Positions 6,068 to 53,324 of a DNA stretch of 54,499 bases are shown in pieces; the first letter of the stretch is position 1, and every line of letters begins with the position of its first letter. The position numbers and the translations under genes are program-made. The notes beneath the pieces were generated by a model. That model had not been told where the DNA came from. It worked only from the letters and a program-made list of their open reading frames with translations, and ran no database searches. This DNA comes from Pseudomonadales bacterium (GTDB taxonomy: Bacteria; Pseudomonadota; Gammaproteobacteria; Pseudomonadales; Ketobacteraceae), in assembly GCA_002701845.1 (NCBI GenBank), contig NZXG01000020.1, forward strand, positions 1-54,499. The letters run 5' to 3'.

Positions 6068-6350
6068 TCTGCCTCTGCTGCTGGTTGACTACAGCCCCAT
6101 GGTAATACAAATGACTTGCCGGTTCCCACGCACCGCTGGTCGTTGTCTGAAACCTTACAATGTCCGTTACCGGCCAAAACCGGAACCCGGCAGGGACCAC
6201 TTCAAAGCCACGGCGGGCTATCCAACCAGCTGAAATAATTGCTTTTTTATTCATCCTTTCCGGCATGACCCCGTGCCCCCGGGCTGGTGCGCCCCTTGCA
6301 GCGCGGTACCGCAACCGGGCTTAGACAACACCCCTGAACAGGAAACTATC

Positions 6351-6839
6351 ATGTCCATGCAACAACAGGCTCTACCCGCCGATTGCGCCAGCATCGCCGA
6401 GGCGGTGACCGATACCAATGACCTGGTGGTGGCCTTTGCCTCTTCCGATGGTGAACTGGTGGATCAGCACTTTGGTTCCGCGGAAGCGTTTTTTGTCTAC
6501 CGCGTCTCCGCCGACGAAGCCGAAATAATCGCCAGCAAACACTTCGGTCATGCCAAGAAAGATGGCAACGAAGACAAACTGAAACCCAAGCTGGCGTGGC
6601 TGGTGGGGGCTGATGTGGTTTACTGCGGTTCCGTAGGCGGCTCCGCCAGCCGCCAGTTGATTGCCCTGGGTATCACCCCGATGAAAGTTACCGGGGGCCC
6701 GGACGTGGACGAACTGATCGAAACCATTCAGCAGGAATTATCCGGTACGCCGGCATTCTGGCTGGCCAATATAATGAAGAAAAAAACCGGGCAGAGTGCA
6801 GACCGGTTCGATGCCATGGCCGACGAGGACTGGGACTAA
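6351..6839 (+). CDS. NifX/NafY-like FeMo-cofactor-domain protein, outside any nif cluster
   Basis: 162 residues from the ATG at 6351, preceded by AGGAAAC. The core matches the NifX/NifB-C-terminal (Nitro_FeMo-Co, PF02579) fold: Phe-Ala-Ser-Ser-Asp-Gly-x-x-Val-Asp-Gln-His-Phe-Gly-Ser near the start, a Glu-Asp-Lys-Leu segment, Val-Tyr-Cys-Gly-Ser-Val-Gly-Gly-Ser-Ala, and Gly-Ile-x-Pro-Met-Lys-Val near the end. In diazotrophs such proteins carry NifB-co or FeMo-co precursors. No other nif gene is present here, so a different metal-cluster or metal-binding role is possible. A short extension (about 30 residues) precedes the domain. The downstream small gene starts ten bases after the stop. Confidence 0.85.
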   Translation: MSMQQQALPADCASIAEAVTDTNDLVVAFASSDGELVDQHFGSAEAFFVYRVSADEAEIIASKHFGHAKKDGNEDKLKPKLAWLVGADVVYCGSVGGSASRQLIALGITPMKVTGGPDVDELIETIQQELSGTPAFWLANIMKKKTGQSADRFDAMADEDWD

Positions 6840-7107: not shown

Positions 7108-7134
7108 CCAAAAAAAAGGGCCCCGAGGGGCCCC
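7108..7134 (-). terminator. Intrinsic terminator of the PHP-type gene
   Basis: GGGCCC and its complement flank a CGAG tetraloop (7118-7133). Eight A at 7110-7117 become a U-tract when read on the minus strand. It lies just after the stop of the minus-strand metallohydrolase gene at 7157, and just after the small gene on the plus strand, for which it has no T-tract. Confidence 0.85.
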
Positions 7135-7156: not shown

Positions 7157-9172
7157 TTATTTGACCTCGATAAAGATCGGGTTGGTGTGGAACCAGATGT
7201 CCGCCCAGGCTTCCACGTCGGCGGTCAGCACACCACCCACGTGCGGAGGACAGGCTGCATCATCACAGGCGATATTATCGCTCAGATGATCGGACAGCGG
7301 GTTGCCGTACAGGTCTCGCTCGTTGGGAGTACCGGCGGGGATGTTGGAACCCCGGGCCCGCACATAAGCATCCTGGGTGGCGCGGAAGGCATAGAACATG
7401 CGCTCACGCTTGTCCTTCTTCAGCTTTTCCGGAATCCAGGTGCGACCGCGATCCCGGCCCGGGTGACCAAAGTCATCCCAGCTCTTGACAATACGGGTGG
7501 TGGCAGGTGCCAGCGGGTTGTAGTACTCGGGATCCGTGGGCGCAATGATCTCTGTCACCTCACCCATGATCAGGTCCACCTGGGCCAGTTCCGGTTCGTT
7601 GATGGGCACGTGCTTGCCGATCTGCAACAGCGAGGGGTTGTCAAAGGCGTACTTGCTGTTGTTTTTGCCGGAAGGATCGGTCACTTCCAGAGCCACAAAT
7701 ACCATCTGCCCCTTACGTACTTTCAGGGTTTCACCCATGGTGGCGCACTGGTTGCGGGTACAGGCCTTGAACTCCAGGTCACCACTGATCAGCTGACCCT
7801 GCACGGTGTAGGAATTACCGCTGCGCAGACCGTCCACGATGGCCTGGGCCCGGTCATCCACATACTCGTCCTCGATCCACACATAATTCTCCTGGTACTC
7901 ACCGGGCCAGAAGTCATTGGTGGTTTCGTAATCCAGGGGACCGAAGCTGCCGCGGCTGTGCCAGTCGGAGCTGGCGAAGAACCAGAAGCGACGGCCTTCG
8001 CTGAGCATGGCATCCCACATGGTGCGCACGCCGGGGCGACACAGAGTCACTTTGGCGGGATCCATATTGTCGGGGATGATTTCGTACTCAGCACCGGGGG
8101 CAAAGTCCGCCTGGGTCAACGGTGTGCCGTCAAAATCCAGTCCGGGTTTAGCGGCTTCCGCCGCACCATAACAACCGGTGCCGCCAAACGTGAACAGACC
8201 CGCGGAGGGACGGCCAGCGTTATAGCTGCCACGGCTGTACTGACCCTGGTGGCCGGGCTGGCTCTCGAAACCAAAGGCGATATCCGGCGCCACCGTGTTC
8301 CAGTCCCGCATATGCTCCACGTTGTAGCCTTCGTCATCGTCTTCGATAAAGGCACCCTGCCGCTCTACGTGGGCCTGTACCGCAAAGCTCTCGCCGGGGA
8401 AGTTTTCCTGCATCCACAGTACCGCGGCGGTGGATTTCACGTGCTCGCCACCGTCATTGATATTAATGCCGCCGCTGAGCGTGGCGTTGTAATCAGCGAT
8501 GCCTTCCTCCGGACGGCCGGCGAACAGGGATTTGATGGTGTCATTGCCGGCGGGGCTCAGTTCGCAGGTCCAGCCCTGACCGCCACCCTGACTGGTGTCA
8601 TCGGAGTTGCGGGCAAAACAGTATTCAAACTGCGCCAGAGCGTCGGAGTTGGGGGTTTCACCGTACTGACCGGTGCTGATGGAGTTACTGGAGTGCTCGT
8701 GACCGGGCACCACCCATTCCAGACCCAGGAATGCGGTTTTTTCTTCGTTGCCGGGCAGTTCGCGCTCATCAACGATGCCCCCCAGGTTGTATTCCTGCAG
8801 ACTCTGCCAGCGCCACATGGCCTGCACCTGTGAACCATTACGCATGGTTTCGTAGCTGACGTCGCCCTTGATATCCGCGGCGCCGGCGGGCAGGGAGTTC
8901 ACCCACAGACCCCGGTTGTATTCGCTGTCACGGTTCAGGTACAGGAAGTCACTGACGCGACAGTCCCGTGAACCCCGGCCACTGTGGCCCACGTGAATAA
9001 ACCAATCCAGGTATTCCAGGGATTTGCGGGTCAGGGTTTTCACCGACGTGGAACCGTCGGAACAGGTGGTGTGGTTATGGAAGTCACCGGCCAGATACTG
9101 GCCGGCACTGGCGCCACCGGCCGCACTGGCCACGGCAGCCGCCAGGGCGGCAGACATAACATTCTTGTTCAT
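7157..9172 (-). CDS. Secreted PHP-type (DUF3604-like) metallohydrolase
   Basis: 671 residues with an Ala-rich Sec signal peptide (about 1-24). Immediately after it comes Gly-Asp-Phe-His-Asn-His-Thr-Thr-Cys-Ser-Asp-Gly-Ser, the metal-binding first motif of PHP phosphoesterases, followed by Phe-Ile-His-Val-Gly-His-Ser. Near residue 400 there is Phe-Ala-Ser-Ser-Asp-Trp-His-Ser-Arg-Gly, another likely metal-ligand segment. The C-terminal 200 residues are beta-rich. The size and order fit DUF3604-like secreted proteins; their substrates are unknown. The signal peptide places it in the periplasm or outside the cell, so its metals must be loaded there. It is divergent from the PpiC/HupE operon across a 382-base shared region and has its own strong terminator. 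Confidence 0.8.
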   Translation of the reverse strand: MNKNVMSAALAAAVASAAGGASAGQYLAGDFHNHTTCSDGSTSVKTLTRKSLEYLDWFIHVGHSGRGSRDCRVSDFLYLNRDSEYNRGLWVNSLPAGAADIKGDVSYETMRNGSQVQAMWRWQSLQEYNLGGIVDERELPGNEEKTAFLGLEWVVPGHEHSSNSISTGQYGETPNSDALAQFEYCFARNSDDTSQGGGQGWTCELSPAGNDTIKSLFAGRPEEGIADYNATLSGGININDGGEHVKSTAAVLWMQENFPGESFAVQAHVERQGAFIEDDDEGYNVEHMRDWNTVAPDIAFGFESQPGHQGQYSRGSYNAGRPSAGLFTFGGTGCYGAAEAAKPGLDFDGTPLTQADFAPGAEYEIIPDNMDPAKVTLCRPGVRTMWDAMLSEGRRFWFFASSDWHSRGSFGPLDYETTNDFWPGEYQENYVWIEDEYVDDRAQAIVDGLRSGNSYTVQGQLISGDLEFKACTRNQCATMGETLKVRKGQMVFVALEVTDPSGKNNSKYAFDNPSLLQIGKHVPINEPELAQVDLIMGEVTEIIAPTDPEYYNPLAPATTRIVKSWDDFGHPGRDRGRTWIPEKLKKDKRERMFYAFRATQDAYVRARGSNIPAGTPNERDLYGNPLSDHLSDNIACDDAACPPHVGGVLTADVEAWADIWFHTNPIFIEVK

Positions 9173-9554
9173 TGATGCACCCCCGAGGTGTCAAAGTTCA
9201 ATTAGCTAGGCAGTTTGTTAATGGATGATGAACGATCACGCCGGTCCGTGGCAGGGCAGCAGCCCATAATCGTCAGGGAGAAGTTTTACCGGGGACAAAT
9301 GTCACTTAGGTTATGGTTTCTTTAAATTTCATGACATTTTTTATGTCAGCCCTCTTCGACCTCAACTTTCTGGTATCCAGCAAGCTGGTGGTCGGCAGCC
9401 GGCCTTTTTGATCCGACTCGTCATGTTTTTGTAGCAAATCCGTTTTATTAATAGCCCTTCCCCCAACGCAGGCCAAGCGCGGCTCTAGAGCAGGCATTGC
9501 GGTTTGTCGGGGGTCGACAGTTCTTATCCAGCCATTACGACCAGTGACCACAGC
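9173..9554. promoter_or_regulatory. Shared divergent regulatory region, PHP gene / HupE operon
   Basis: No gene is seen here. It separates the PHP-type gene (leftward) from the PpiC/HupE operon (rightward) and so must hold both promoters. A perfect inverted repeat TGACAT-N5-ATGTCA lies at 9332-9348 (the spacer is five T), and another ATGTCA copy is at 9299-9304, exactly 44 bases before the right arm. This looks like a regulator site with an extra half-site. The 9504 TTG that would extend the PpiC-like frame into this region is not favoured. Confidence 0.45.
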
Positions 9555-10463
9555 ATGCCCGTAACTCAGCGCCTGAACCTCTTTCGCGAACCCCTGATCC
9601 AGTTTTTAATCCTGGGGGCCATGTTATTCGCGGTGGACGCGTATGTGCTGGCCAACCGCGACGATCCCCGGCGTATTGTCATCGACGATGAGCGGGTGGC
9701 AGAGCTGATCGCGATCTTTAAAGAGGGACAGGGCCGGGAACCGTCCCCCCAGGAGGTTCAAAATCTCATTATCAAGTGGTCGCAAAACGAAATTTTGTAC
9801 CGGGAGGCACAACAGCTGCGGATGGATCAGGGGGATGAGATGATCCGCAACCGGCTGATCCTGAAGATGCGTAATGTATTGTTCAACCGGGTAGTGGTGG
9901 ATGCACCAAGCCCTGGGGAACTGGAGGAATTTTTCGAGTTCAACCGGCAGCGCTACGACACCCCCGCCCGCTATGATCTGGAAGTGGTACCGCTCACTGA
10001 CCCGGCACTGGCACAACAGGCGGGGCAACTGGCCAGGGAGCTCAATACCGGCACACTGACATTGAACGCGCTGGATAATCCCGTACACAACTATGAAAGC
10101 CGGCCCCGATCCAACCTTGAAGCCCTGTTCGGTGATGCCGCTATCGCCCCTTTGCTGGATGACCCAGGCAATGACTGGCAGGTGGTTGAGCACGACCGGG
10201 AGCGCCACCTGGTGCGGGTGGTGGCCCGATATCCGGCACAACCGGCGCAACTGGAACAGGTAAAGAGCCAGGTGATCCGGCACTGGAAACAGTTCAGTAA
10301 CGAGATGCAGCTGGCGGATCAGACCAAAGCCATGGCGGACCGTTATCGGATCCGGCTGGATCTGAGCCGGGAAATGAGTGAGCGGTTACCGGAAGACAGT
10401 GACGCCAGCCGCATCCATCAGATCAGCGACCGGTTCCGCCCGGCGGACGTGATGGTGAACTGA
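9555..10463 (+). CDS. Membrane-anchored PpiC/SurA-like peptidyl-prolyl isomerase
   Basis: 302 residues from the ATG at 9555; a TTG at 9504 would add 17 residues without signal character. A single N-terminal membrane helix (around residues 11-32) is followed by a helical segment of SurA/PpiD chaperone type and a parvulin-like region. The latter is rather diverged: the usual catalytic parvulin motif is not obvious around the Ala-Arg-Tyr-Asp-Leu-Glu segment, so a chaperone role may be more likely than isomerase activity. It should face the periplasm. Its stop is one base before the next ATG, so the first two genes are tightly coupled. Confidence 0.7.
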   Translation: MPVTQRLNLFREPLIQFLILGAMLFAVDAYVLANRDDPRRIVIDDERVAELIAIFKEGQGREPSPQEVQNLIIKWSQNEILYREAQQLRMDQGDEMIRNRLILKMRNVLFNRVVVDAPSPGELEEFFEFNRQRYDTPARYDLEVVPLTDPALAQQAGQLARELNTGTLTLNALDNPVHNYESRPRSNLEALFGDAAIAPLLDDPGNDWQVVEHDRERHLVRVVARYPAQPAQLEQVKSQVIRHWKQFSNEMQLADQTKAMADRYRIRLDLSREMSERLPEDSDASRIHQISDRFRPADVMVN

Positions 10464-10464
10464 G

Positions 10465-11436
10465 ATGCAGCTGGGCACCCGGACTCTGTTAAAAGTTCTG
10501 ACCGCCGTGTTGCTGTTGCAGGCGGCTGGCAGCCTGTGGGCCCACGACACCCCCATTGCCCTGCTGACCCTGAGTGAACGCCAGCAGGGCTTGTATAACG
10601 TGGAATGGACTTTTTCCTCGGCCCTCAATCTGCCCCCACCGACGCCGGTATTCCCCGACCATTGTCAATACGACCACCCTCGCCTGCAGTGTGGCGAAAC
10701 CGGGTTGCAGGGGCGGCTGTCACTGCAACAACTGGGGGAGCGCTACTCCGCCGCCGTGGTGCAGATTCATCGCCTCAATGCCAAGTCCCTCACCTATACC
10801 CTGACCGGAGCCAATCCCGCAGTCAGTATCACCCCCAGCGGCGTACTACCCTGGCAGCAGATCATGGCCTCGTATGTGCCCCTGGGATTTGAGCACATTA
10901 TGCTGGGGGTGGATCATCTGTTGTTTGTGCTGGGTCTGATGTGGCTGGTGGGCAACACCTGGATGCTGATCAAAACCATTACCGCCTTTACCGTGGCCCA
11001 CAGCATCACTCTGGCGGCGGTAACCCTGGGCTGGGTTGGCGTGCCGGAACAGCCGGTGAACGCTGCCATCGCCCTCAGCATTGCCATCGTGGCGGTGGAG
11101 GTGTTGAAAGCCCGGCGCGGAGAACCCAGCCTCAGTGCCCGCATGCCCTGGGTTATCGCCTTTGGTTTTGGCCTGCTGCACGGGTTTGGCTTCGCCGGAG
11201 CCCTTACCGATATCGGCCTGCCACCGGAAAACCTGCCGGCGGCGCTGCTGTTCTTTAACGTGGGCGTGGAGCTGGGTCAGATTGGCTTTGTGCTGGCGGT
11301 GTTGGCGCTGTTGTGGAGCCATCGGGCTTTGCAGGCGCAATTCCCCCGTTGGAGCGAGACGGCGGCCATTTACGCGGTGGGTACCGTCGGCAGCTTCTGG
11401 TTCCTGTCCCGCCTGGACCTGTTAATGACCATTTGA
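10465..11436 (+). CDS. HupE/UreJ_2-type membrane protein with periplasmic N-domain
   Basis: 323 residues. A signal peptide ending near Ala-His is followed by a soluble, two-cysteine periplasmic domain (about 25-135), then six or seven membrane helices. The family motifs are all present: Phe-Glu-His-Ile-Met-Leu-Gly-Val-Asp-His-Leu-Leu-Phe, Phe-Thr-Val-Ala-His-Ser-Ile-Thr-Leu, Gly-Leu-Leu-His-Gly-Phe-Gly-Phe-Ala-Gly and Phe-Asn-x-Gly-Val-Glu-x-Gly-Gln. The buried His/Asp/Glu residues are those thought to handle Ni or Co in related HupE/UreJ permeases. Members of this longer subfamily have no assigned substrate. Start ATG one base after the preceding stop. Confidence 0.88.
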   Translation: MQLGTRTLLKVLTAVLLLQAAGSLWAHDTPIALLTLSERQQGLYNVEWTFSSALNLPPPTPVFPDHCQYDHPRLQCGETGLQGRLSLQQLGERYSAAVVQIHRLNAKSLTYTLTGANPAVSITPSGVLPWQQIMASYVPLGFEHIMLGVDHLLFVLGLMWLVGNTWMLIKTITAFTVAHSITLAAVTLGWVGVPEQPVNAAIALSIAIVAVEVLKARRGEPSLSARMPWVIAFGFGLLHGFGFAGALTDIGLPPENLPAALLFFNVGVELGQIGFVLAVLALLWSHRALQAQFPRWSETAAIYAVGTVGSFWFLSRLDLLMTI

Positions 11437-11456
11437 AACTTCCCGAGGATCTAACA

Positions 11457-12068
11457 ATGAACAAGCCAACCGCCTTACAGCCCGCCACACTCCTTACTTT
11501 TCTGCTTTTGACCCTGTGTGCCGGCCAGGCCCAGGCCCATGCGGAAACCGGCGTTGCCGGCGGCCTGATCAGCGGCTTTCTGCATCCGTTGTTGGGGCTG
11601 GATCACCTGGTGGCCATGGTGGCGGTGGGGCTCTGGGGCGCTCAGTTGCAGAAGCCGGCCATCTGGTTGCTGCCCATCACGTTTCCGTTGTTGATGGCCA
11701 TGGGCGCGGTGCTGGGGTTGTTCGGGGTGCCGGTGCCGGGGATTGAGGTGGGTATTGCCCTGTCGGCGCTGATTCTGGGTCTGATGGTGTTGTTCAGTGT
11801 CCGCCCACCCCTGGTGGTGGCAGCAGTCATCGTGGGTTTCTTCGCCATTTTCCATGGCCACGCCCACGGTACTGAACTACCGGATGCCGCCAACCCATTG
11901 GCCTATGGGGTGGGCTTTGTGGTAAGCACCGGTCTGTTGCACCTGGCGGGCATCGTGCTGGGTGTGCTGACCCTGTGGCCGGCCGGAGTGCGGGCGGTGA
12001 AAGGGCTGGGAGGTTGCATCACCGCCCTGGGGGTGTATTTTTCCGTTGCCAGTTTCGGCTGGCTGTAA
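11457..12068 (+). CDS. HupE/UreJ-family metal permease-like protein
   Basis: 203 residues from ATG 11457 (GAGGAT upstream). A cleavable signal ends Gln-Ala-Gln-Ala-His, leaving a mature N-terminal His. His-Pro-Leu-Leu-Gly-Leu-Asp-His-Leu-x-Ala-Met-Val-Ala-Val-Gly-Leu-Trp is the HupE signature, and Phe-His-Gly-His-Ala-His-Gly-Thr-Glu-Leu the second. Both have the His, Asp and Glu residues proposed to carry nickel or cobalt. There are six membrane helices. No hydrogenase or urease genes are in the window, so a role in supplying metal to another enzyme, perhaps the neighbouring PHP or oxygenase proteins, is inference. Confidence 0.9.
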   Translation: MNKPTALQPATLLTFLLLTLCAGQAQAHAETGVAGGLISGFLHPLLGLDHLVAMVAVGLWGAQLQKPAIWLLPITFPLLMAMGAVLGLFGVPVPGIEVGIALSALILGLMVLFSVRPPLVVAAVIVGFFAIFHGHAHGTELPDAANPLAYGVGFVVSTGLLHLAGIVLGVLTLWPAGVRAVKGLGGCITALGVYFSVASFGWL

Positions 12069-12080
12069 CCCGGAGTCCCC

Positions 12081-12671
12081 ATGCGCCGTCTACTGTGGCT
12101 TGCCCTGCTGATTCCGGTTCCGGCTTCCGCCCATCTGGTGTCCACCCGCTTTGGGGAGTTTTACGCCGGCATGCTGCACCCGGTCACCACCCTGGGTCAT
12201 CTGGTGCCCTGGCTGGCGGTGGGTTTGCTGGCGGGCCTGCAGCATTCCGCACTGGCCCGCAAAGTCCTGCTGCTGTTTCCGCTGGCGGTGCTGGCGGGCA
12301 CCTGGATGGGTAGTGAGCTGAACACCGCCGCCTGGGTCGGCATCGTCAATCAGAGCTCATTGCTGATCCTGGGGCTGCTGGTGGTGCTGGCTCGGCCCCT
12401 GCCACCGGCTGTTTTCAGCGGGGTGGTAATGATTCATGGCCTCAGTCACGGATTGGGTAACGGCGCCACGGATCTGTCCGGTAACGGCCTGCTGCTGTAC
12501 GTGCTGGGGGTCACCACTGCCGCCTACCTGCTGGTGACATTGCTTACCGCGTCCAGTCATCAGTTGGTGACCCGGCAGTCCTGGGGCACGGTGGCGATAC
12601 GGGCCGGTGGCAGCTGGATTGCCGCCGTGGGCCTTATCTACCTGACCTTTACCCTGCTGGCGGCGCCATGA
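12081..12671 (+). CDS. Degenerate HupE/UreJ-like membrane protein
   Basis: 196 residues, signal peptide ending Pro-Ala-Ser-Ala-His, with six membrane helices. It follows the HupE plan, but the first signature reads His-Pro-Val-Thr-Thr-Leu-Gly-His-Leu: the conserved Asp before the second His is Gly. The second region keeps His-Gly-Leu-Ser-His-Gly without the following Glu-Leu. This suggests a paralogue that lost or changed metal binding, perhaps a subunit working with the two preceding HupE proteins. It starts 12 bases after the previous gene and overlaps the next by ATGA. Confidence 0.75.
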   Translation: MRRLLWLALLIPVPASAHLVSTRFGEFYAGMLHPVTTLGHLVPWLAVGLLAGLQHSALARKVLLLFPLAVLAGTWMGSELNTAAWVGIVNQSSLLILGLLVVLARPLPPAVFSGVVMIHGLSHGLGNGATDLSGNGLLLYVLGVTTAAYLLVTLLTASSHQLVTRQSWGTVAIRAGGSWIAAVGLIYLTFTLLAAP

Positions 12672-15370
12672 CCGCGGCCGGCTCCCTGGGCGACACCACC
12701 TCGCCTGCTGAATTGAGCAAACCCAAACAAACGGCGTTTTACCTGCTGGTGACCCTGTCCGGATTGGCGGGGTTGGGCTATCAGATGGTCTGGGCCCGTC
12801 TGCTGGCGGTGTCTCTGGGTCACGAAATTGTGGCGGTGCTGGCGGTGGTGGCGGCCTTCTTCGTGGGCCTGGCCCTGGGGGGATTCCTGTTCAACCGGAG
12901 CTTACAGCGGACCCCGTCACCCCAGCGCTGGTACCTGGGACTGGAGCTGATCATTGCGGCCTGGGCGCTGGTGCTGATTGCCCTGATTCCGTTATACAAC
13001 CAGTGGATGCCTCAGGTTCTGGGCCCTACCCCCGGCGCTCTGACCCACTGGGGCTGGGCCTTCCTCGCCTCGTTGCTGTTACTGCTGCCCGCCACCACCG
13101 CCATGGGGGCCACCCTGCCTGCCATGGAACGGATTATGAGCACCCTGGCGGGGCGCCAGCACCGGCTGCCCGGGCTTTACGCCGCCAATACTCTGGGGGC
13201 GGTGCTGGGCACCCTCGGCGCCACCTTTGTGCTCATTCCCCAGTGGGGTCTGACCCAGACCCAATGGCTGCTGGCGGCGGTGAATCTGCTGTGCGCCCTG
13301 GGTATCGGCGGCCTGTTTCCCCGTAGCGGGGCTGCCGCGCAAGCAATGCCGGTTACCCGCCCCCGGCTCCTCCCTGCCGGCAGCCGGCCCCTGCTGCTGC
13401 TGTTCTGTTGTGGACTGCTGGGCATCGGTTACGAAATCCTGGTGGTGCGGGTGCTGAGCCAGATCCTGGAAAACACCGTCTATAGCTTTGCCGCCGTGCT
13501 GGCGGTGTATCTGCTGGGAGTGGCCGTGGGTTCCTGGTGGTACCAGCGCCGGTTCGCGGATACCGGCACGCCTGCCGCAGGGTCGCCTGCCGCAGGGTCG
13601 CCTGCCGCAGGATCGCCTGCCGCAACTGATATTCTGACGCGGCTGCTGGTATTCACTGCCTGCAGCTGTGTGCTGGGACTGGGGGCCCTCTGGCTGGCCA
13701 ATGCCTGGTACCTGCCCCTGTTACAGTGGATTGAACGCACCCTGTGGACCGCCCTGCTGACCGAGTTGGCCATGGCGGCGCTGGTATTTCTGTTGCCCAC
13801 TCTGTGCATGGGGGCCCTGTTCAGCCATCTGGCGCTGTTGAGTCTGCCCCGGCACGGTCTGGGTAAAGCCCTGGGCTGGAACACCCTGGGGGGCGCCCTG
13901 GCCCCCGCCCTGTTCGGCGTGGTGTTGCTGCCCTGGCTGGGGGCAAAAACCGCCCTGCTACTGATTCCCCTGGGCTATCTGGCGCTGGTGGCGGGCGCCG
14001 GCGGCAAACCCAGGCCGGCCGTGCGCTCGGCCCTGATACCGGCGCTGGCGATCATCCTGTTGCTGCTGGCGCCGCTGCCCCTGCGCTTTGTGGCGATCCC
14101 GGATCAGGCCCGGCTGCTGGAGTACCGGGAGGGGGTGATGGCAGCGGCGGCGGTGGTGGAACAGGCCGACGGCTCCCGCCACCTCAAAGTCAACAATCAT
14201 TTCACCATGGGCGGGACCGCATCCCGTTTGTCCGATCACCGCCAGAGCCATCTGCCCCTGCTGTTACACGGTACCCCGCGCTCGGCCCTGTATCTGGGGC
14301 TGGGCACCGGCATCACCTTTGAAGCGACGAAGTTCTACCCTGAACTGGAGGCCACTGGCGTCGAGCTGATCCCGGAGGCCATTGAGCTGATGCCCAGCTT
14401 TGGCGTCAACCCCGACTCCGGCCACTGGTCCCGGCCACCGCACATCATCGCCGCCGATGCCCGCCGGTTTATACTCTCATCCCGGGACCGGTTCGATGTG
14501 ATTCTCGCGGAAATATTTCACCCCTCCCGGGATGGTGCCGGTGCTCTGTATACCCGGGAGCATTTCCAGGCCATCAAACAGCGCCTGCAACCGGATGGGG
14601 TGTTCTGTCAGTGGCTGCCGCTGTTTCAACTGGATCTGGACACACTGCGGATCATTATCCGCACCTTTCTTGAGGTGTTTCCGACGACCCAATTGCATCT
14701 GGGGCATCTCAGCCTGGAGCAACCGATCCTGTGTCTGGCCGGATTCCAGCAACCGCCGGCATTCACCTCCCCCTGGCTGCTACCCCGGGTTCGCCATCCG
14801 GCTCTGCAACAGGAACTGGTACAAACCCGGCTTAATTCTGATTTTGCCCTGTTTGGCGGTTATCTGGGGGACGCCGGAGCCCTGGCCCGGTTTGCCGGGG
14901 AAGGCCCGCTGAATACCGATGACCGGCCCCTGGTGACCTATCAGGCGCCGGATTTTGTCTACCGTCCGCAAGAGCCGGCGGCGGAGCGGCTGCTACAGTT
15001 AGTGACGGCACTGGCGTCAGAACGCAACGGCCAGCCGCTCTCTCCGGCGAGCTTCGCGCCGGAGCATTTTGCCGGGCGACTGCAGCGCTATTGGGAGGCC
15101 CGGGATCGGTTCATCGCCACCGGTGTTGCAAACCGGGAAGCCACCGATTTGCAGCAAATGCTGCTGGCCAGCAAAGAAGACCTGTTGGCCATGGTCCGCC
15201 GCAGTGACGACTTCGCGCCCGCTTACCGCACCCTGTTGCTGGGAGCCCGAAGCCTGGCGGCCTCGGATCCCCGGGCCGCTTACCGGCTGCTCACGGAGTT
15301 ACAGCAGGCCAGCCCCCAACAGCCGGGGGCCAAGCGCCTGAAACAGCAATTGTTCGGAGCGGGTCCATGA
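12668..15370 (+). CDS. Membrane protein fused to a spermidine-synthase-like domain
   Basis: 900 residues. The first 470 or so are about a dozen hydrophobic helices; residues about 490-700 are a Rossmann-type spermidine-synthase-like (SpeE) domain, with Leu-Gly-Leu-Gly-Thr-Gly and a downstream acidic Val-Glu-Leu for S-adenosyl binding, then Ala-Asp-Ala-Arg-Arg-Phe. Where SpeE enzymes have the catalytic Asp-rich loop, this reads Ala-Glu-Ile-Phe-His-Pro-Ser, so ordinary aminopropyl transfer is doubtful. The last 100 residues are helical and TPR-like. Residues about 300-320 are a Pro-Ala-Ala-Gly-Ser repeat linker between helices. It overlaps both neighbours by ATGA, indicating translational coupling. 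Confidence 0.85.
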   Translation: MTAAGSLGDTTSPAELSKPKQTAFYLLVTLSGLAGLGYQMVWARLLAVSLGHEIVAVLAVVAAFFVGLALGGFLFNRSLQRTPSPQRWYLGLELIIAAWALVLIALIPLYNQWMPQVLGPTPGALTHWGWAFLASLLLLLPATTAMGATLPAMERIMSTLAGRQHRLPGLYAANTLGAVLGTLGATFVLIPQWGLTQTQWLLAAVNLLCALGIGGLFPRSGAAAQAMPVTRPRLLPAGSRPLLLLFCCGLLGIGYEILVVRVLSQILENTVYSFAAVLAVYLLGVAVGSWWYQRRFADTGTPAAGSPAAGSPAAGSPAATDILTRLLVFTACSCVLGLGALWLANAWYLPLLQWIERTLWTALLTELAMAALVFLLPTLCMGALFSHLALLSLPRHGLGKALGWNTLGGALAPALFGVVLLPWLGAKTALLLIPLGYLALVAGAGGKPRPAVRSALIPALAIILLLLAPLPLRFVAIPDQARLLEYREGVMAAAAVVEQADGSRHLKVNNHFTMGGTASRLSDHRQSHLPLLLHGTPRSALYLGLGTGITFEATKFYPELEATGVELIPEAIELMPSFGVNPDSGHWSRPPHIIAADARRFILSSRDRFDVILAEIFHPSRDGAGALYTREHFQAIKQRLQPDGVFCQWLPLFQLDLDTLRIIIRTFLEVFPTTQLHLGHLSLEQPILCLAGFQQPPAFTSPWLLPRVRHPALQQELVQTRLNSDFALFGGYLGDAGALARFAGEGPLNTDDRPLVTYQAPDFVYRPQEPAAERLLQLVTALASERNGQPLSPASFAPEHFAGRLQRYWEARDRFIATGVANREATDLQQMLLASKEDLLAMVRRSDDFAPAYRTLLLGARSLAASDPRAAYRLLTELQQASPQQPGAKRLKQQLFGAGP
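13569..13624 (+). repeat. 15-bp tandem repeat inside the SpeE-like fusion gene
   Basis: The unit CGCCTGCCGCAGGGT occurs 3.7 times (starts 13569, 13584, 13599, 13614), with one substitution in the third copy. It encodes Pro-Ala-Ala-Gly-Ser repeats between membrane helices. The unit length is a multiple of three, so copy number can change without breaking the frame. Confidence 0.95.
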
Positions 15371-15987
15371 GCGGCATCAATCTGCAGCAGGCCATGCTGC
15401 CGGCCTTTGCCACCCCCCTGATTAATCACCACTGGCCCGACAGTGCCCCCCTGAATCGACAATTGGCGGAACTGGTGGAACGCCTGGCCGGGGAGCAGCG
15501 GGGATTGCAGAAAAGCAATGTGGGGGGTTGGCATTCGGATCTGCAGTTTCTGCAGCGAACGGAACCCTGCGTGGTGGCTTTGCGTCAGCGGCTCAACCAA
15601 CTTGTGGAACAGCTTAATCGGGCAGTGGCCAGGCAGGATGCCACCCCGGAAGACCTGACTTACCGCCTGGAAGGCTGGGCCAACAAACTGGGATTCGGCG
15701 AGTACAACAGCCTGCACTGTCATCCCAACAGCTTCTGGTCGGGAGTGTACTACGTAACCGGCAATGAGGCGCCGCCGGAACACCCCTTCAGCGGCAAACT
15801 GGAATTGCTGGATCCCCGGCCCGGGGCCAGTCTGGCTTACGCCGAACAGACCAATCTTTACGGCCGCTTTCTGATTAACCCCGTGCCCGGCCAGGTAGTG
15901 GTCTTCCCCTCCTGGCTACAACACCAGGTACATCCCTGCTTCAGTGAGCAACCGCGCATATCTGTGGCGTTCAATGTGATATTGTAG
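15367..15987 (+). CDS. 2OG-Fe(II) oxygenase, TIGR02466-like
   Basis: 206 residues, cytoplasmic (no signal). The C-terminal half shows the jelly-roll pattern of the putative 2-oxoglutarate/Fe(II) family TIGR02466: Asn-Ser-Leu-His-Cys-His-Pro-Asn-Ser-x-x-Ser-Gly-Val-Tyr-Tyr-Val, then Pro-Ser-Trp-Leu-Gln-His-Gln-Val-His-Pro, then Arg-Ile-Ser-Val-Ala-Phe-Asn. The two His groups supply iron ligands and the Arg the 2-oxoglutarate carboxylate. The substrate is unknown; family members occur in natural-product and protein-modification contexts. It is the last gene of the operon, overlapping the fusion gene by ATGA, and faces a second member of the same family. Confidence 0.88.
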   Translation: MSGINLQQAMLPAFATPLINHHWPDSAPLNRQLAELVERLAGEQRGLQKSNVGGWHSDLQFLQRTEPCVVALRQRLNQLVEQLNRAVARQDATPEDLTYRLEGWANKLGFGEYNSLHCHPNSFWSGVYYVTGNEAPPEHPFSGKLELLDPRPGASLAYAEQTNLYGRFLINPVPGQVVVFPSWLQHQVHPCFSEQPRISVAFNVIL

Positions 15988-16023
15988 GGCCAGGGTTCGC
16001 AGCACAAACTCATCCCGGCTGGT

Positions 16024-16653
16024 TCAGTCCGAAAACCGGACTTCATAGTCCCAGCTTTTCAATCGCTCCGGGAGGGCATTGAAGGCGATGGTGACGCGCT
16101 CACTGCCTTCGTTACGGGGCACCGCATGCAACATATAGCTGGGAAACAATAACAGATCCCCCCGCTCCATATCAGTAGCCGCCCAGCGGTCCCCATTGTA
16201 AGGCGTGGTGGCGGACTCGGCGTGGTTGTTGGAAAACACAAACTGACGCAGCCCCATGCTGTTGTGGAACACGGTTTTCGAGGATTCATGGGCGTCGGTG
16301 AGGTACACCACTCCGGAGATGAAACTGTTGGCATGGGAATGCATTACCTGATGGCCGCCGTTAGCCAGGCGGTTCATCCACATCTCCTTGATGTGCCACA
16401 CCAGATTCTCGCCGAACAGCAGAAACCCGAAGTCCCGCAGATAATCCTGCGCCAGCTCACCAATATGGGCGAACTGGGGGCTCTGCTGGGGCCGGATCAC
16501 TTCGGTATGAGACAACAGGTCGGTGTGGGCGTTGGTCAGTTGAGAGCCGGTCCCGGTGGCCGCCACGGTGGCATCAATGACGTCCTCCCCGAGAAATTTC
16601 TCCACCCGCATCACCGGCACCGGAAACAGATTGTGGATGTGAATCTGACTCAT
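16024..16653 (-). CDS. Second 2OG-Fe(II) oxygenase, TIGR02466-like
   Basis: 209 residues, no signal. The motifs match the other family member: His-Ser-His-Ala-Asn-Ser-Phe-Ile-Ser-Gly-Val-Val-Tyr-Leu-Thr, then Leu-Phe-Pro-Ser-Tyr-Met-Leu-His-Ala-Val-Pro and Arg-Val-Thr-Ile-Ala-Phe-Asn. Sequence between motifs differs clearly from the first copy, so they are old paralogues rather than a recent duplication. The start overlaps the stop of the EF-hand lipoprotein gene (ATGA), so the two minus-strand genes are translationally coupled. It is convergent with the first oxygenase, 36 bases apart. Confidence 0.85.
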   Translation of the reverse strand: MSQIHIHNLFPVPVMRVEKFLGEDVIDATVAATGTGSQLTNAHTDLLSHTEVIRPQQSPQFAHIGELAQDYLRDFGFLLFGENLVWHIKEMWMNRLANGGHQVMHSHANSFISGVVYLTDAHESSKTVFHNSMGLRQFVFSNNHAESATTPYNGDRWAATDMERGDLLLFPSYMLHAVPRNEGSERVTIAFNALPERLKSWDYEVRFSD

Positions 16654-17150
16654 GGCCGGGACCGGGCCCGCAGAAACGCCGCCAGCTCCGCCTCCTCTGC
16701 GGTGACCACGCCATCAGCGTCTGTATCCGCCAGCTCCAGGGCCCGGAACACATGTTGGCGATACTCCATCACCGACACCGTGCCATTGCGATTGGTGTCC
16801 ATCTGCTGAAACACATACAGGTCCTTGTCCCTGGACTCGGCACTGGAATGCGCCAGGAATTCAGCCTGGCTGATGCTGCGGGACTGATCGCGATCCGCAA
16901 AAAAATAAAGTTCGAAGAAGTGGTTATCCACTTCGCCGGCCTCCACCTCACCCTTCTTTTCACAATCCAGCACGCTGAACACCGGCTGCAGAAAGTGCAC
17001 CGCCGACGCCCGCTGGTCGGGGAGCGGCGCACTATCATCCTGCGCTGACGACGCCTGTGGTTGTGCCTGTGCCGGTACCTGTGCAGCCGGGCTGCACCCC
17101 CCCAGAGCCAGAGCGGCAACCATCATGGTGAAACCCGCTGTAATCTTCAT
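16650..17150 (-). CDS. EF-hand calcium-binding lipoprotein
   Basis: 166 residues. The signal ends with lipobox Ala-Leu-Gly-Gly-Cys, then comes a Gln/Ala/Pro linker. Four EF-hand-type loops follow: an imperfect Asp-Cys-Glu-Lys-Lys-Gly loop, Asp-Arg-Asp-Gln-Ser-Arg-Ser-Ile, Asp-Thr-Asn-Arg-Asn-Gly-Thr-Val and Asp-Thr-Asp-Ala-Asp-Gly-Val-Val. The last two are canonical. Expected in the envelope, facing the periplasm, probably sensing or binding Ca2+. It is translationally coupled to the downstream 2OG oxygenase, an odd pairing of envelope and cytoplasmic proteins. Confidence 0.88.
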   Translation of the reverse strand: MKITAGFTMMVAALALGGCSPAAQVPAQAQPQASSAQDDSAPLPDQRASAVHFLQPVFSVLDCEKKGEVEAGEVDNHFFELYFFADRDQSRSISQAEFLAHSSAESRDKDLYVFQQMDTNRNGTVSVMEYRQHVFRALELADTDADGVVTAEEAELAAFLRARSRP

Positions 17151-44004: not shown

Positions 44005-44023
44005 GATAATTATTTGCATTATC
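44005..44023 (+). promoter_or_regulatory. Fur box of the siderophore uptake operon
   Basis: GATAATTATTTGCATTATC matches the 19-bp Fur consensus at 15 positions; both outer hexamers are perfect. It ends 38 bases before the fhuC-like ATG. It should place fhuC-fhuD-fhuB-iutA under iron repression. Confidence 0.88.
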
Positions 44024-44061
44024 ATTGTGATGATTTTTTGGGACAGGCAGGACAACACTCT

Positions 44062-44856
44062 ATGATCACGCTGAATCAGGTCACTGTGCGTCGCGGCGGC
44101 AAGCGTATCCTGAATGCGGTTTCCATGGCACTGACACCGGGCAAAATCACCGCCATCGTGGGCCCCAACGGCTCCGGCAAAAGCTCACTGCTGAAAGTGA
44201 TGGTGGGGGCCATGGCACCGGATCGCGGTGCCGTCAGCCTTGGCGACCGGCCTCTCAGCCGCTGGCCGCGCCGGGAACTGGCCCGCGCCCTGGCCTATCT
44301 GCCCCAGTCTTCCGAACGCCCCAGCGGCATGACCGTGGAAGAGGTGGCCGCCTGTGGCCGCTTCCCCCATCTGCCCCCCTGGGCCAATCTGAGCCCCCAG
44401 GATCAAGCGGCGGTGACCGAGGCCCTGCGCCAGACCGAAATGCTGGCCCTGGCCAACCGGCCGGTGGACCACCTCTCCGGCGGGGAGATGCAACGGGTAT
44501 GGCTGGCCACGGTACTGGCCCAGGGCTCCGGGCTGCTGTTGCTGGATGAACCCAATTCCTTTCTGGATCTGAGCCATCAACTGGAATTAATGGCACTGAT
44601 CAAACGCCTGAATCAGTCACTGAACAAGACCATCGCGCTGGTGATCCACGACCTCAATCAAGCCATTCAGTGGTGCGATGAAGTAATTGTAATGCAGGAG
44701 GGTGGCCTGCACAGCGCCGGCAGCATTTCCGTGCTGCAGGATCCGGAATTGCTGCAGCAGGTATTCAACCTGTCCTGCCAGTTTCTGCGGGTGCCGGGTC
44801 AGAACCGTCCGCTGCTGCAGGCCAGTCTGTATCAGGATCCGGGAGTCAGAGGCTGA
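44062..44856 (+). CDS. fhuC: Siderophore ABC transporter ATPase, FhuC-like
   Basis: Drives import of ferric siderophore across the inner membrane. 264 residues from ATG 44062, after the Fur box. Walker A Gly-Pro-Asn-Gly-Ser-Gly-Lys-Ser-Ser, signature Leu-Ser-Gly-Gly-Glu-Met-Gln-Arg, Walker B Leu-Leu-Leu-Leu-Asp-Glu-Pro, His of the H-loop in Val-Ile-His-Asp-Leu-Asn. It belongs to the FecCD-associated subfamily. The stop shares a base with the next start, so translation is coupled. Confidence 0.95.
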   Translation: MITLNQVTVRRGGKRILNAVSMALTPGKITAIVGPNGSGKSSLLKVMVGAMAPDRGAVSLGDRPLSRWPRRELARALAYLPQSSERPSGMTVEEVAACGRFPHLPPWANLSPQDQAAVTEALRQTEMLALANRPVDHLSGGEMQRVWLATVLAQGSGLLLLDEPNSFLDLSHQLELMALIKRLNQSLNKTIALVIHDLNQAIQWCDEVIVMQEGGLHSAGSISVLQDPELLQQVFNLSCQFLRVPGQNRPLLQASLYQDPGVRG

Positions 44857-45818
44857 TGCAGAACACGCCAATCCGGGTCGGTGCCCTACTCTGCCTGCTG
44901 ATATTCACTGCCAACGCTGACGCCATTGTGATCCGCCACGACGCCGGCAGCACCGGTTTCGAGCAACCGCCCCAGCGCATTGTGGCCCTGACCTGGTCCC
45001 AGGCGGAAATCCTGCTGACCCTGGGCATTACCCCGGTGGGGGTGGCCAGTGTCCCCGGCTACCACAAGTGGCATTCCAACCGGCCGCCGTTGCCGGCTTC
45101 CGTGGTGGACGTGGGGCATCGGGGCAATCCCAATCTGGAAGTGATCGCCGGGCTGCAGCCGGATCTGATTCTGGGCTACAACTTCCGCCATGCCAATCAA
45201 CTGGGGCGGCTGCAAAGCATTGCCCCCACCCTGCTCTACCGGCAGTATCCCAGCGGCCATGACAACCAGTTCCGCTATTTTCAACAAATGCTGCGCATTA
45301 CCCGGGATCTGGGGCGCCTGTTGCAACGGGAGGCCGCCGCCACTGCCGCCATCAACGGGATGCAGCAAACCATTACCGAGGCCCGGCAGGCACTGGCCGG
45401 GGCCGGCTTGGCCGGGGCACCGGTGGTGCTGGGCAAGTTCGTCGGCATGGGAATGGGGTTGCGGGTCTTCTCCGACCATTCCCTGGCAGCCGATGTGGCC
45501 GGCCAATTGGGGCTGGAAAATCAATGGCACCACTCTTTGCCCGGTCGCGATTTCAGTCATATTCAATTGCCCCAGATGCTGGCCCTGGGCAATGTACATC
45601 TGATCATTTTTGGCGATGACTCCGACGAAACCGCGCTGATGCAGCGCTCGGCCATCTGGCCGCAACTGGCGTTCGTGCGCCGGAACCAGGTCTATCGGGT
45701 GGCCAACAGCTGGGGCTTCGGCGGCCCGGTGTCAGCCTCACTGCTGGCGCAGCGCATCAGCCAGGCGCTGCTGGCGGGGCGCTATGCGGAGCAGCGTCAT
45801 CCGGAGGGCCGGCCATGA
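44856..45818 (+). CDS. fhuD: Siderophore periplasmic-binding protein, FhuD-like
   Basis: Binds ferric hydroxamate-type siderophore in the periplasm. 320 residues, signal peptide to about Ala-Asp-Ala. Characteristic FhuD runs: Gln-Arg-Ile-Val-Ala-Leu-Thr-Trp-Ser-Gln, Arg-Pro-Pro-Leu-Pro-Ala-Ser-Val-Val-Asp-Val-Gly and Asn-Pro-Asn-Leu-Glu. These parallel E. coli FhuD along the N-lobe. Its start overlaps fhuC, its stop overlaps the permease gene (ATGA). Confidence 0.93.
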   Translation: MQNTPIRVGALLCLLIFTANADAIVIRHDAGSTGFEQPPQRIVALTWSQAEILLTLGITPVGVASVPGYHKWHSNRPPLPASVVDVGHRGNPNLEVIAGLQPDLILGYNFRHANQLGRLQSIAPTLLYRQYPSGHDNQFRYFQQMLRITRDLGRLLQREAAATAAINGMQQTITEARQALAGAGLAGAPVVLGKFVGMGMGLRVFSDHSLAADVAGQLGLENQWHHSLPGRDFSHIQLPQMLALGNVHLIIFGDDSDETALMQRSAIWPQLAFVRRNQVYRVANSWGFGGPVSASLLAQRISQALLAGRYAEQRHPEGRP

Positions 45819-47749: not shown

Positions 47750-47801
47750 CCACGCCTCGGCCAGCAACGCTGTATTGGGGATCAATAACAGGAGTAACGA
47801 C

Positions 47802-52471: not shown

Positions 52472-53047
52472 TCAGGCGATGGCAAGGTAGACGCCACCCA
52501 TGGCAATGGCCGCTCCTCCCATTCGGGTAACTGTTTGCAGATTCACCTGGCGCAGCAGCAGACCCAGCCCGACACCCGCCAGGTGCAGAGCCGCAGTGGC
52601 GGTAGCAAATCCCGCCACATAGCTGGTGGCTCCTGTGGTGGCGGGGAGTTCAGCGCCGTGGGCAACGCCGTGAAACACCGCGAACACGCCCACGATCAGC
52701 CCAGTGACCGTCAACGGCAGTTTGAAAGCCCCTGCCAACAGCAGCCCCAACACCAGTACCGACGCCAGGATTCCGGTTTCCACAAAAGGCACGGCCACAC
52801 CGAAAAAGCCCAGCAGGCTGCCCATAACCATCATACCGACGAAGGTGGCGGGTACCACCCACAGGGCCCGCCGCGACTGGCCGGCCGCCCAGAGTCCCAC
52901 GGCCACCATGGCCAACAGGTGATCCAGCCCCTGAACCGGGTGCATCAAACCATGCAGCACGCCCGAGGTGGTGCCAGTACCTGTATGAGCCAGCGCAATA
53001 CCAGGCAGCAACAAAAACAGGGCACACAGTTTACCGGATTGGCGCAT
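52472..53047 (-). CDS. HupE/UreJ-family metal permease-like protein (fourth copy)
   Basis: 191 residues from ATG 53047, AAGGGGA upstream. Signal ends at Ile-Ala-Leu-Ala-His, leaving an N-terminal His. It has intact motifs: His-Pro-Val-Gln-Gly-Leu-Asp-His-Leu-Leu-Ala-Met-Val-Ala-Val-Gly-Leu-Trp and Phe-His-Gly-Val-Ala-His-Gly-Ala-Glu-Leu. It closely resembles the copy at 11457. It likely moves Ni2+ or Co2+. No urease, hydrogenase or cobalamin genes are nearby. Confidence 0.93.
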   Translation of the reverse strand: MRQSGKLCALFLLLPGIALAHTGTGTTSGVLHGLMHPVQGLDHLLAMVAVGLWAAGQSRRALWVVPATFVGMMVMGSLLGFFGVAVPFVETGILASVLVLGLLLAGAFKLPLTVTGLIVGVFAVFHGVAHGAELPATTGATSYVAGFATATAALHLAGVGLGLLLRQVNLQTVTRMGGAAIAMGGVYLAIA

Positions 53048-53324
53048 AGTATTTCCCCTTATGTGGACGTGGCGACGTTGGTGATGACGCAAGATTCAGA
53101 AACTGATCCCCCGGCTCCATCGACTTGCCTTTGCCCTGGCAGCTATCCCCAACAAAGCGTAAGGACCAACATTATGACAATAGTATGTCAGCGGGCTTTG
53201 GGGGGCAACGCATGATGGAGTGATGGATTGGATACCAACGGCCCGCTAGCTGACGTTCATCCCACCCGTAGCGCCTCGGGCAATACCGGTGCCGCAGCAG
53301 CGGCAGACACAGCAAAGCCGGATG

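What the first reader, a model, noticed from the sequence alone, without database searches (positions are those of the whole stretch)
7157..17150. PHP hydrolase / PpiC / triple HupE / SpeE-like fusion / twin 2OG-oxygenase block: candidate undescribed system
A secreted PHP-type metallohydrolase is divergent from an operon whose genes nearly touch (one-base gap, ATGA overlaps): a periplasmic PpiC-like chaperone, three HupE/UreJ-type membrane proteins, a membrane-SpeE-like fusion and a TIGR02466-type 2OG-Fe(II) oxygenase. A second such oxygenase, coupled to an EF-hand lipoprotein, faces it. No urease, hydrogenase or cobalamin genes explain the HupE proteins. Metal-loading of an exported PHP enzyme, or oxygenase-dependent modification of an exported product, are two possible readings. 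The grouping is seen; the function is inference.
Basis: partly seen in the sequence, partly recalled or inferred. Interest (0 to 1): 0.75.

Follow-up and report, generated by a model that had tools for sequence, protein, structure and literature searches.

The report
Exported hydrolase coupled to metal permeases
A bacterium carries a conserved block of genes that ties an exported, probably metal-dependent enzyme to its own folding helper and to metal-uptake membrane proteins; a simpler three-gene version occurs in many bacteria, and what the block does is not known.

Summary
Window 7157-17150 has an exported PHP-like hydrolase divergent from PpiC-HupE2-HupEb-HupEc-SpeE-like-2OG oxygenase, facing an EF-hand/2OG pair. 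Seven other loci found through the hydrolase alone carry PpiC, the HupE genes and the SpeE-like gene wherever the contig reaches far enough, with largely different flanks. A betaproteobacterial plasmid has hydrolase, SpeE-like, PpiC, HupE2 and oxygenase re-ordered on one strand, beside nikR, a TonB receptor and PCu(A)C.

The core is one case of a wider unit: exported PHP-like hydrolase (elsewhere usually DUF3604), PpiC foldase and HupE/UreJ-2 permease. A PpiC profile hit 30 further places; HupE2 follows PpiC in 29, DUF3604 is present in 25. My searches of the held papers found no description. HupE/UreJ-2 proteins were recently shown to bind Cu/Ni through an N-terminal histidine (PMC12537917).

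Best reading: an envelope system coupling a Sec-exported metallohydrolase to transition-metal capture and import, perhaps nickel. Metal, substrate and SpeE/2OG role are inference. The nickel link is weak: NikR lies beside one locus, is absent from the window's genome, and flanks of ordinary DUF3604 units are not metal-rich.

The parts
7157..9172 (-). Exported PHP/CehA-McbA-like putative metallohydrolase, Sec-like signal peptide (by eye)
   Evidence: NF038032 48.4 bits (cut-off 80); nine candidate metal ligands (H32 H34 D39 H63 E152 H160 H268 D403 H405) invariant in 7 sequences, the other six 29-64% identical to it; profile match to PHP protein 2anu E 0.0018
7117..7134 (-). Terminator-like hairpin with T tail behind the PHP gene
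   Evidence: the stretch holds 14 such sites against 10.5 (sd 3.5) expected from shuffles
9173..9554 (.). 382-base divergent intergenic region, presumably both promoters
   Evidence: no sigma-70 consensus site found here
9555..10463 (+). Membrane-anchored PpiC-type foldase
   Evidence: PF13145 43.1 bits (cut-off 27); ATG checked
10465..11436 (+). HupE2: signal peptide, periplasmic domain beginning with His (by eye), HupE/UreJ-2 permease
   Evidence: PF13795 E 2.6e-49; model of mean pLDDT 60 shows a beta-rich N-terminal domain
11457..12068 (+). HupEb: HupE/UreJ permease, signature motifs intact (motifs recalled)
   Evidence: PF04955 E 8.7e-58
12081..12671 (+). HupEc: divergent HupE/UreJ paralogue with degraded signature motifs (motifs recalled)
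   Evidence: PF04955 E 7.3e-21
12668..15370 (+). Polytopic membrane protein fused to a SpeE-like SAM-binding domain
   Evidence: NF037959 74.4 bits (cut-off 40), PF01564 E 4.4e-7; true speE models far below cut-off
15367..15987 (+). TIGR02466-type 2OG-Fe(II) oxygenase 1 (accessory)
   Evidence: TIGR02466 82.9 bits (cut-off 62.5), PF13759; close copy only in L011 among the seven loci
16024..16653 (-). 2OG-Fe(II) oxygenase 2 (the recurrent one)
   Evidence: PF13759 80 bits (cut-off 27), TIGR02466 61.7 bits (just under 62.5); also L010, L011, L013, L014 and L109
16650..17150 (-). EF-hand lipoprotein-like protein, overlapping oxygenase 2 by four bases
   Evidence: EF-hand Pfam matches; relatives in L010-L014; lanmodulin model only 27.7 of 135 bits

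Best explanation
The block is one functional unit built on a widespread three-part core. SHOWN by comparison: an exported PHP-like hydrolase, a membrane-anchored PpiC foldase and a HupE/UreJ-2 permease travel together, and in this variant also with two HupE paralogues, a SpeE-like membrane fusion, a 2OG oxygenase and usually an EF-hand protein. INFERRED: the hydrolase is secreted unfolded by Sec and folded at the outer face of the inner membrane by PpiC. Its metal-dependent hydrolysis of an organic compound in the periplasm is coupled to capture of a transition metal, most likely nickel, by the N-terminal histidine of HupE2, which passes it to the HupE channels for import. The SpeE-like and 2OG enzymes make or modify the small molecule concerned, such as a metal ligand. 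The EF-hand protein gives calcium-dependent binding or stabilisation of the hydrolase.
For: PpiC, HupE genes and SpeE-like gene beside the hydrolase in the loci found by the hydrolase alone (6 of 6, 4 of 4 and 3 of 3 that reach). Re-ordered set on a betaproteobacterial plasmid with nikR (PF08753 E 1.7e-26), a TonB receptor and PCu(A)C. HupE2 follows PpiC in 29 of 30 places hit by the PpiC profile, in 15 with a four-base overlap; DUF3604 present in 25 of 30. Candidate PHP metal ligands invariant. HupE/UreJ-2 N-terminal domains bind Cu (Kd 74 nM) and Ni (220 nM) through His1 in PMC12537917. Mature N-terminal His in 21 of 33 PpiC-linked HupE2. Urease and [NiFe]-hydrogenase genes in the same genome. 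A SpeE-like relative at 40% identity, in L086, lies three bases before a TonB receptor and about 3 kb from zrgA. In L113, PpiC-HupE2 lies 474 bases downstream of an ABC operon with a gene annotated 'dipeptide/oligopeptide/nickel'.
Against: NikR is absent from the window's genome and six relatives (0 of 7). 12 of 33 PpiC-linked HupE2 start with Asp, not His. Flanks of the PpiC units are not metal-rich: of 133 families matched by 100 neighbours, the 25 shown hold no metal-specific one, only SBP_bac_5 (peptide/nickel type) in 2 of 100. Five distant PHP relatives examined (L016, L017, L018, L110, L111) have no PpiC or HupE2 match in their stretches. The TonB receptors of the window, L086 and L109 show no close likeness. 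No substrate is known. Fold predictions were poor and a fold search with the HupE2 model gave nothing at E 0.001.
Confidence: 0.38

Rival explanations
1. The PHP-like protein is a nutrient-scavenging hydrolase (phosphoester, sulfate-ester or carbamate type). PpiC is its dedicated foldase, the HupE proteins serve metal supply in general, and the SpeE-like and 2OG enzymes process the released product.
For: L010 carries a calcineurin-like phosphoesterase and L011 a PhoX gene beside the cluster, and the genome's second PpiC is divergent from an exported calcineurin-like phosphoesterase without HupE. Sulfatases and DUF1254 proteins each matched 2 of 100 neighbours of the PpiC units.
Against: Does not explain why a HupE/UreJ-2 permease follows PpiC in 29 of 30 places, nor nikR in L109.
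Confidence: 0.3
2. One reading: HupE proteins and PpiC load and fold the exported PHP enzyme, the metal serving the enzyme itself.
For: The permease is tied to PHP-like exported proteins of two distantly related kinds; the direct profile comparison of the two kinds was negative.
Against: HupE/UreJ proteins are described as metal permeases with uptake proposed (passages of PMC2667541 and PMC12537917), while the hydrolase signal looks Sec-type, so metal should be loaded in the periplasm.
Confidence: 0.15
3. The SpeE-like/2OG pair builds a metal ligand that is secreted and recovered through a TonB receptor; the hydrolase cleaves it to free the metal.
For: TonB receptors near SpeE-like genes in L109 and L086; nikR in L109.
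Against: The two receptors are not alike; I saw none inside the block in the window, L010, L011 or L014; of 37 neighbours of SpeE-like relatives scanned, only single ones matched metal-uptake families.
Confidence: 0.1
4. Chance neighbourhood of unrelated genes.
For: The outer flanks are ordinary and the hydrolase subfamily is rare (2 of 369 class genomes, one being the window's own and the other a partial match).
Against: Recurrence in seven loci with largely different flanks and in a re-ordered plasmid copy.
Confidence: 0.02

Closest known systems
HupE/UreJ-2 'anglerase' permeases (Ang-1, PMC12537917)
   Same: PF13795 permease with signal peptide, extracytoplasmic N-terminal domain and a mature N-terminal His (by eye)
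   Different: N-terminal domain here is about 100 residues; in RbAng-1a the linker starts at residue 176. The Ang-1 neighbours named in that paper's section 8 text are proteins of unknown function, DUF4198, indigoidine A-like and PfkB, not PHP/DUF3604 or PpiC (its figures are not held)
DUF3604 (PF12228) exported proteins with PpiC and HupE
   Same: Same three-part core, same PpiC and HupE2 profiles
   Different: The window's hydrolase is not DUF3604 and its direct profile comparison with DUF3604 is negative. No SpeE-like, 2OG or EF-hand profile match was found in the 25 DUF3604 stretches (a weak SpeE-like match lies in L060, which has no DUF3604)
CehA/McbA metallohydrolases (NF038032)
   Same: Partial profile match over the later part of the model (positions 158-257)
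   Different: Below the curated cut-off (48.4 of 80 bits); exported, and about twice the length of the 315-position model
Fused MFS/spermidine synthase (NF037959)
   Same: Polytopic membrane part plus SpeE-like domain, above cut-off
   Different: Long C-terminal extension; the catalytic DSSDP-type motif of true SpeE (recalled) is replaced by FHPSRDGAG

Membership tests
DUF3604 (PF12228) | Profile match over gathering score | tested here: not met
   No match even at E 1; hhalign probability 2.5
CehA/McbA metallohydrolase (NF038032) | Score over curated cut-off 80 | tested here: not met
   48.4 bits; relatives L016 72.5 and L018 61.5 bits, also below
PHP superfamily | Conserved His/Asp/Glu metal ligands and PHP fold | tested here: inconclusive
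   Nine candidate ligands invariant, profile hit to 2anu E 0.0018; fold model failed, pLDDT 34.5
HupE/UreJ-2 (PF13795) | Profile over cut-off 24.5 | tested here: met
   167.3 bits
Anglerase Ang-1 | His directly after signal peptide cleavage | tested here: inconclusive
   Read by eye in the window; no signal-peptide program run; 21 of 33 PpiC-linked HupE2 have His, 12 Asp
Anglerase Ang-1 | Beta-sandwich Cu/Ni-binding domain | tested here: inconclusive
   Beta strands at 31-122 in a model of mean pLDDT 60; no significant PDB match; metal binding not testable here
Spermidine synthase (speE) | TIGR00417 / PRK03612 equivalog cut-offs | tested here: not met
   40.3 of 249.55 and 72.5 of 472 bits
TIGR02466 oxygenase | Score over 62.5, oxygenase 1 (15367-15987) | tested here: met
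   82.9 bits
TIGR02466 oxygenase | Score over 62.5, oxygenase 2 (16024-16653) | tested here: not met
   61.7 bits, just under; PF13759 met
Lanmodulin | NF053806 cut-off 135 | tested here: not met
   27.7 bits
NikR-regulated nickel uptake | NikR in the same genome | tested here: not met
   0 of 7 genomes; present beside L109

The most novel reading that the evidence does not exclude
A new class of envelope metal-acquisition system: an exported PHP-type hydrolase, folded by its own PpiC, cleaves an organic metal complex in the periplasm and hands the freed transition metal to a histidine-tipped HupE permease. In this variant the cell also makes or modifies the ligand with a membrane SpeE-like enzyme and 2OG oxygenases. 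The DUF3604-PpiC-HupE units of many Pseudomonadota would be its simpler form.
Probability: 0.15. Interest if true: 0.85.

Novelty: new variant of a known kind. Interest (0 to 1): 0.6.

Why it matters
Pfam still lists DUF3604 as of unknown function. A fixed partnership with a foldase and a metal permease gives a testable hypothesis for these proteins. It would also extend the recent anglerase work from a metal-binding domain to a physiological context. The window variant offers a compact gene set to test whether SpeE-like membrane fusions and TIGR02466 oxygenases belong to metal handling.

Tried and rejected
AlphaFold of the hydrolase (pLDDT 34.5) and of HupE2 (pLDDT 60), and a fold search with the latter (no match at E 0.001), gave nothing usable.

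A direct profile comparison of the hydrolase alignment with DUF3604 failed. An alignment with three distant PHP relatives gave only a 71-column match (probability 88).

A lanmodulin/lanthanide idea was dropped (27.7 of 135 bits). A metal context was looked for by scanning neighbours; each answer shows only the 25 commonest families. For HupE2 loci without PpiC I scanned 79 of 120 listed neighbours: 5'-nucleotidase C-terminal domains in 4, DUF6488 in 4, DUF4198 in 3. For the PpiC loci I scanned 100 of 111 listed neighbours: nothing metal-specific among the 25 of 133 families shown, SBP_bac_5 in 2. For the SpeE-like relatives I scanned 37 of 135 listed neighbours. In one search one HupE2 (L066) was left unresolved by my pattern and read by eye as His.

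L019, L020 and L021 are the same contigs as L010, L014 and L008; I count the loci once, but L019 and L020 are among the 33 HupE2. L013 lacks the PpiC side because the contig starts there. L008 and L009 end after PpiC, and L012 ends inside HupEb.

Four genomes supply two of the 30 PpiC places each, and L063/L064 come from one genus, so the 30 are not fully independent. In L073 the DUF3604 match next to PpiC is a 93-residue fragment; a full one lies further on. The 34 HupE2 loci of the control were my pick from the matches in 101 genomes.

Papers: PMC12537917 abstract, section 8 in full and other passages; PMC2667541 passages. All others were seen in listings only. PMC2812973 is not held.
Full report
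OBSERVATION. Coordinates and junctions were checked on the DNA. An exported PHP-like protein (7157-9172, minus) is separated by 382 bases from a plus-strand run of genes: PpiC (ATG at 9555), HupE2, HupEb, HupEc, a SpeE-like membrane fusion and a TIGR02466 oxygenase. Their gaps are 1, 20, 12, -4 and -4 bases. A second oxygenase and an EF-hand lipoprotein-like protein, overlapping by four bases, face it. The hydrolase is not a DUF3604 member: Pfam gives nothing even at E 1, and its only match is CehA/McbA NF038032 at 48.4 of 80 bits. Nine candidate metal ligands are invariant among seven sequences, the other six being 29-64% identical to it, and a profile reaches the PHP structure 2anu at E 0.0018.

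IT RECURS. A scan of genome contigs with the hydrolase alone found seven loci. In all six that include the upstream side, PpiC is divergent from the hydrolase. HupE2 and HupEb are present in 4 of 4 loci long enough to show them, and HupEc and the SpeE-like gene in 3 of 3. Oxygenase 2 is in four (L010, L011, L013, L014). A close copy of oxygenase 1 is only in L011, so it is accessory. An EF-hand protein is in five (L010-L014), but its place moves between oxygenase 2 and the hydrolase. Flanking genes largely differ between loci; L014, the nearest relative, shares the Nitro_FeMo-Co gene next to the hydrolase. The hydrolase is rare: 6 of 96 relatives matched at 1e-20, four of them full length including the window's own genome, and 2 of 369 class genomes, one being the window's own and the other a partial match. 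More distant PHP relatives (L016, L017, L018, L110, L111) show no PpiC or HupE2 match in their stretches, so the enzyme family also exists without the unit.

AN INDEPENDENT ASSEMBLY. Plasmid CP099604.1 of a Comamonadaceae bacterium (L109) carries, on one strand, nikR, a TonB receptor, a small lipoprotein-like protein, the hydrolase (35% identity), SpeE-like, PpiC, HupE2, the oxygenase (46%) and a PCu(A)C chaperone. One short gene on the other strand lies between receptor and lipoprotein. Pfam supports NikR (E 1.7e-26), the TonB receptor, SpeE-like (E 1.2e-5), PpiC, HupE2, the oxygenase and PCuAC. Changed order with retained membership is strong evidence for a functional unit.

THE WIDER CORE. 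The PpiC profile hit 26 of 398 phylum genomes at 31 places. I read all 30 places other than the window's. HupE2 follows PpiC on the same strand in 29 of 30, in 15 of them with a four-base overlap; four larger overlaps come from my taking the longest frame. DUF3604 lies in the stretch in 25 of 30, and within 200 bases of PpiC on the same strand in 21 (one of these, L073, by a 93-residue fragment). The one place without HupE2 is the window genome's second PpiC (L068), which is divergent from an exported calcineurin-like phosphoesterase. HupEb and HupEc homologues also sit beside the unit in L075 and L076. As a control, only 2 of the 34 loci that I took from the general PF13795 search have PpiC, and both are DUF3604-PpiC-HupE2. 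Of 71 plasmid records with a PpiC match I opened nine: HupE/UreJ follows PpiC in nine of nine. DUF3604 is present in seven, the window-type hydrolase in one (L109), and neither in one (L113).

MECHANISM. By eye the window's hydrolase has a Sec-like signal, and many DUF3604 proteins have signal or lipoprotein-like starts. A twin-arginine pattern appeared in 3 of 28 DUF3604 frames, at least one with a doubtful start, and in none of six PHP frames. A dedicated PpiC is then a natural foldase. HupE/UreJ-2 proteins with an N-terminal His were shown to bind Cu (Kd 74 nM) and Ni (220 nM) and were proposed to capture metal and feed it to the permease (PMC12537917, section 8). By eye, all three HupE proteins of the window begin their mature chain with His. 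Among 33 PpiC-linked HupE2 proteins, 21 have His and 12 have Asp. The genome has nickel enzymes: urease and [NiFe] hydrogenase; for Ni-SOD the search was uninformative, as no control rang. I therefore favour hydrolase-coupled transition-metal capture and import. The SpeE-like protein fails the true speE cut-offs and lacks the recalled DSSDP motif, so it is probably not a spermidine synthase. A relative in L086 lies three bases before a TonB receptor and about 3 kb from zrgA. Among neighbours scanned there are also single ZnuA, CusB-type and AcrB-type matches, which by their sequences and sizes I assign to L087 and L089.

AGAINST. NikR is absent from the window's genome and six relatives. The flanks of the PpiC units are not metal-rich in what was shown. 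The TonB receptors of the window, L086 and L109 are not alike. L010 and L011 carry phosphatases beside the block, which suits a nutrient-scavenging rival. Structure predictions failed.

LITERATURE. In the held open-access library, DUF3604 with HupE gives no paper and DUF3604 alone gives one, on Chlamydia transposon mutants (listing only). One search gave none; others (12 of 12 listed; 12 of 91 listed; 10 of 39; 10 of 11; 1 of 1) showed no title or abstract opening describing the PHP/DUF3604-PpiC-HupE unit. That is a statement about this library and these searches only.

Noticed in passing
window 52472-53092(-), with 44014-50273(+): A fourth HupE/UreJ gene lies about 2 kb from a TonB receptor that follows a FecCD-type ABC uptake set (ATPase, binding protein, permease): another possible metal or cofactor uptake locus in the same window.
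   Followed up: partly
window 6345-6839(+); L014 12345-12836(-): A Nitro_FeMo-Co (NifX-like) gene sits beside the hydrolase in the window and in its nearest relative.
   Followed up: no
L068 1003-4100: The window's own genome has a second PpiC of this subfamily, divergent from an exported calcineurin-like phosphoesterase; a protein of the same Pfam make-up sits beside the cluster in L010 at 704-2716.
   Followed up: partly
L110 6100-8629: In a Photobacterium replicon a distant PHP relative has a small EF-hand protein directly upstream; further upstream lie what by eye are urease accessory genes and a HupE.
   Followed up: partly
L091-L107: Distant SpeE-like fusions of Gammaproteobacteria seem, from like gene sizes, to have a conserved neighbourhood of their own; formylglycine-generating-enzyme-like domains matched 4 and 4Fe-4S domains 3 of the 37 neighbours scanned.
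   Followed up: no
L075 3-5900: Three tandem DUF3604 frames (the first cut by the end of the stretch) next to the PpiC-HupE unit and a HupEb-HupEc pair.
   Followed up: no
L113 828-7853: PpiC-HupE2 without DUF3604 in the stretch, 474 bases downstream of an ABC operon with a gene annotated as dipeptide/oligopeptide/nickel transporter.
   Followed up: no
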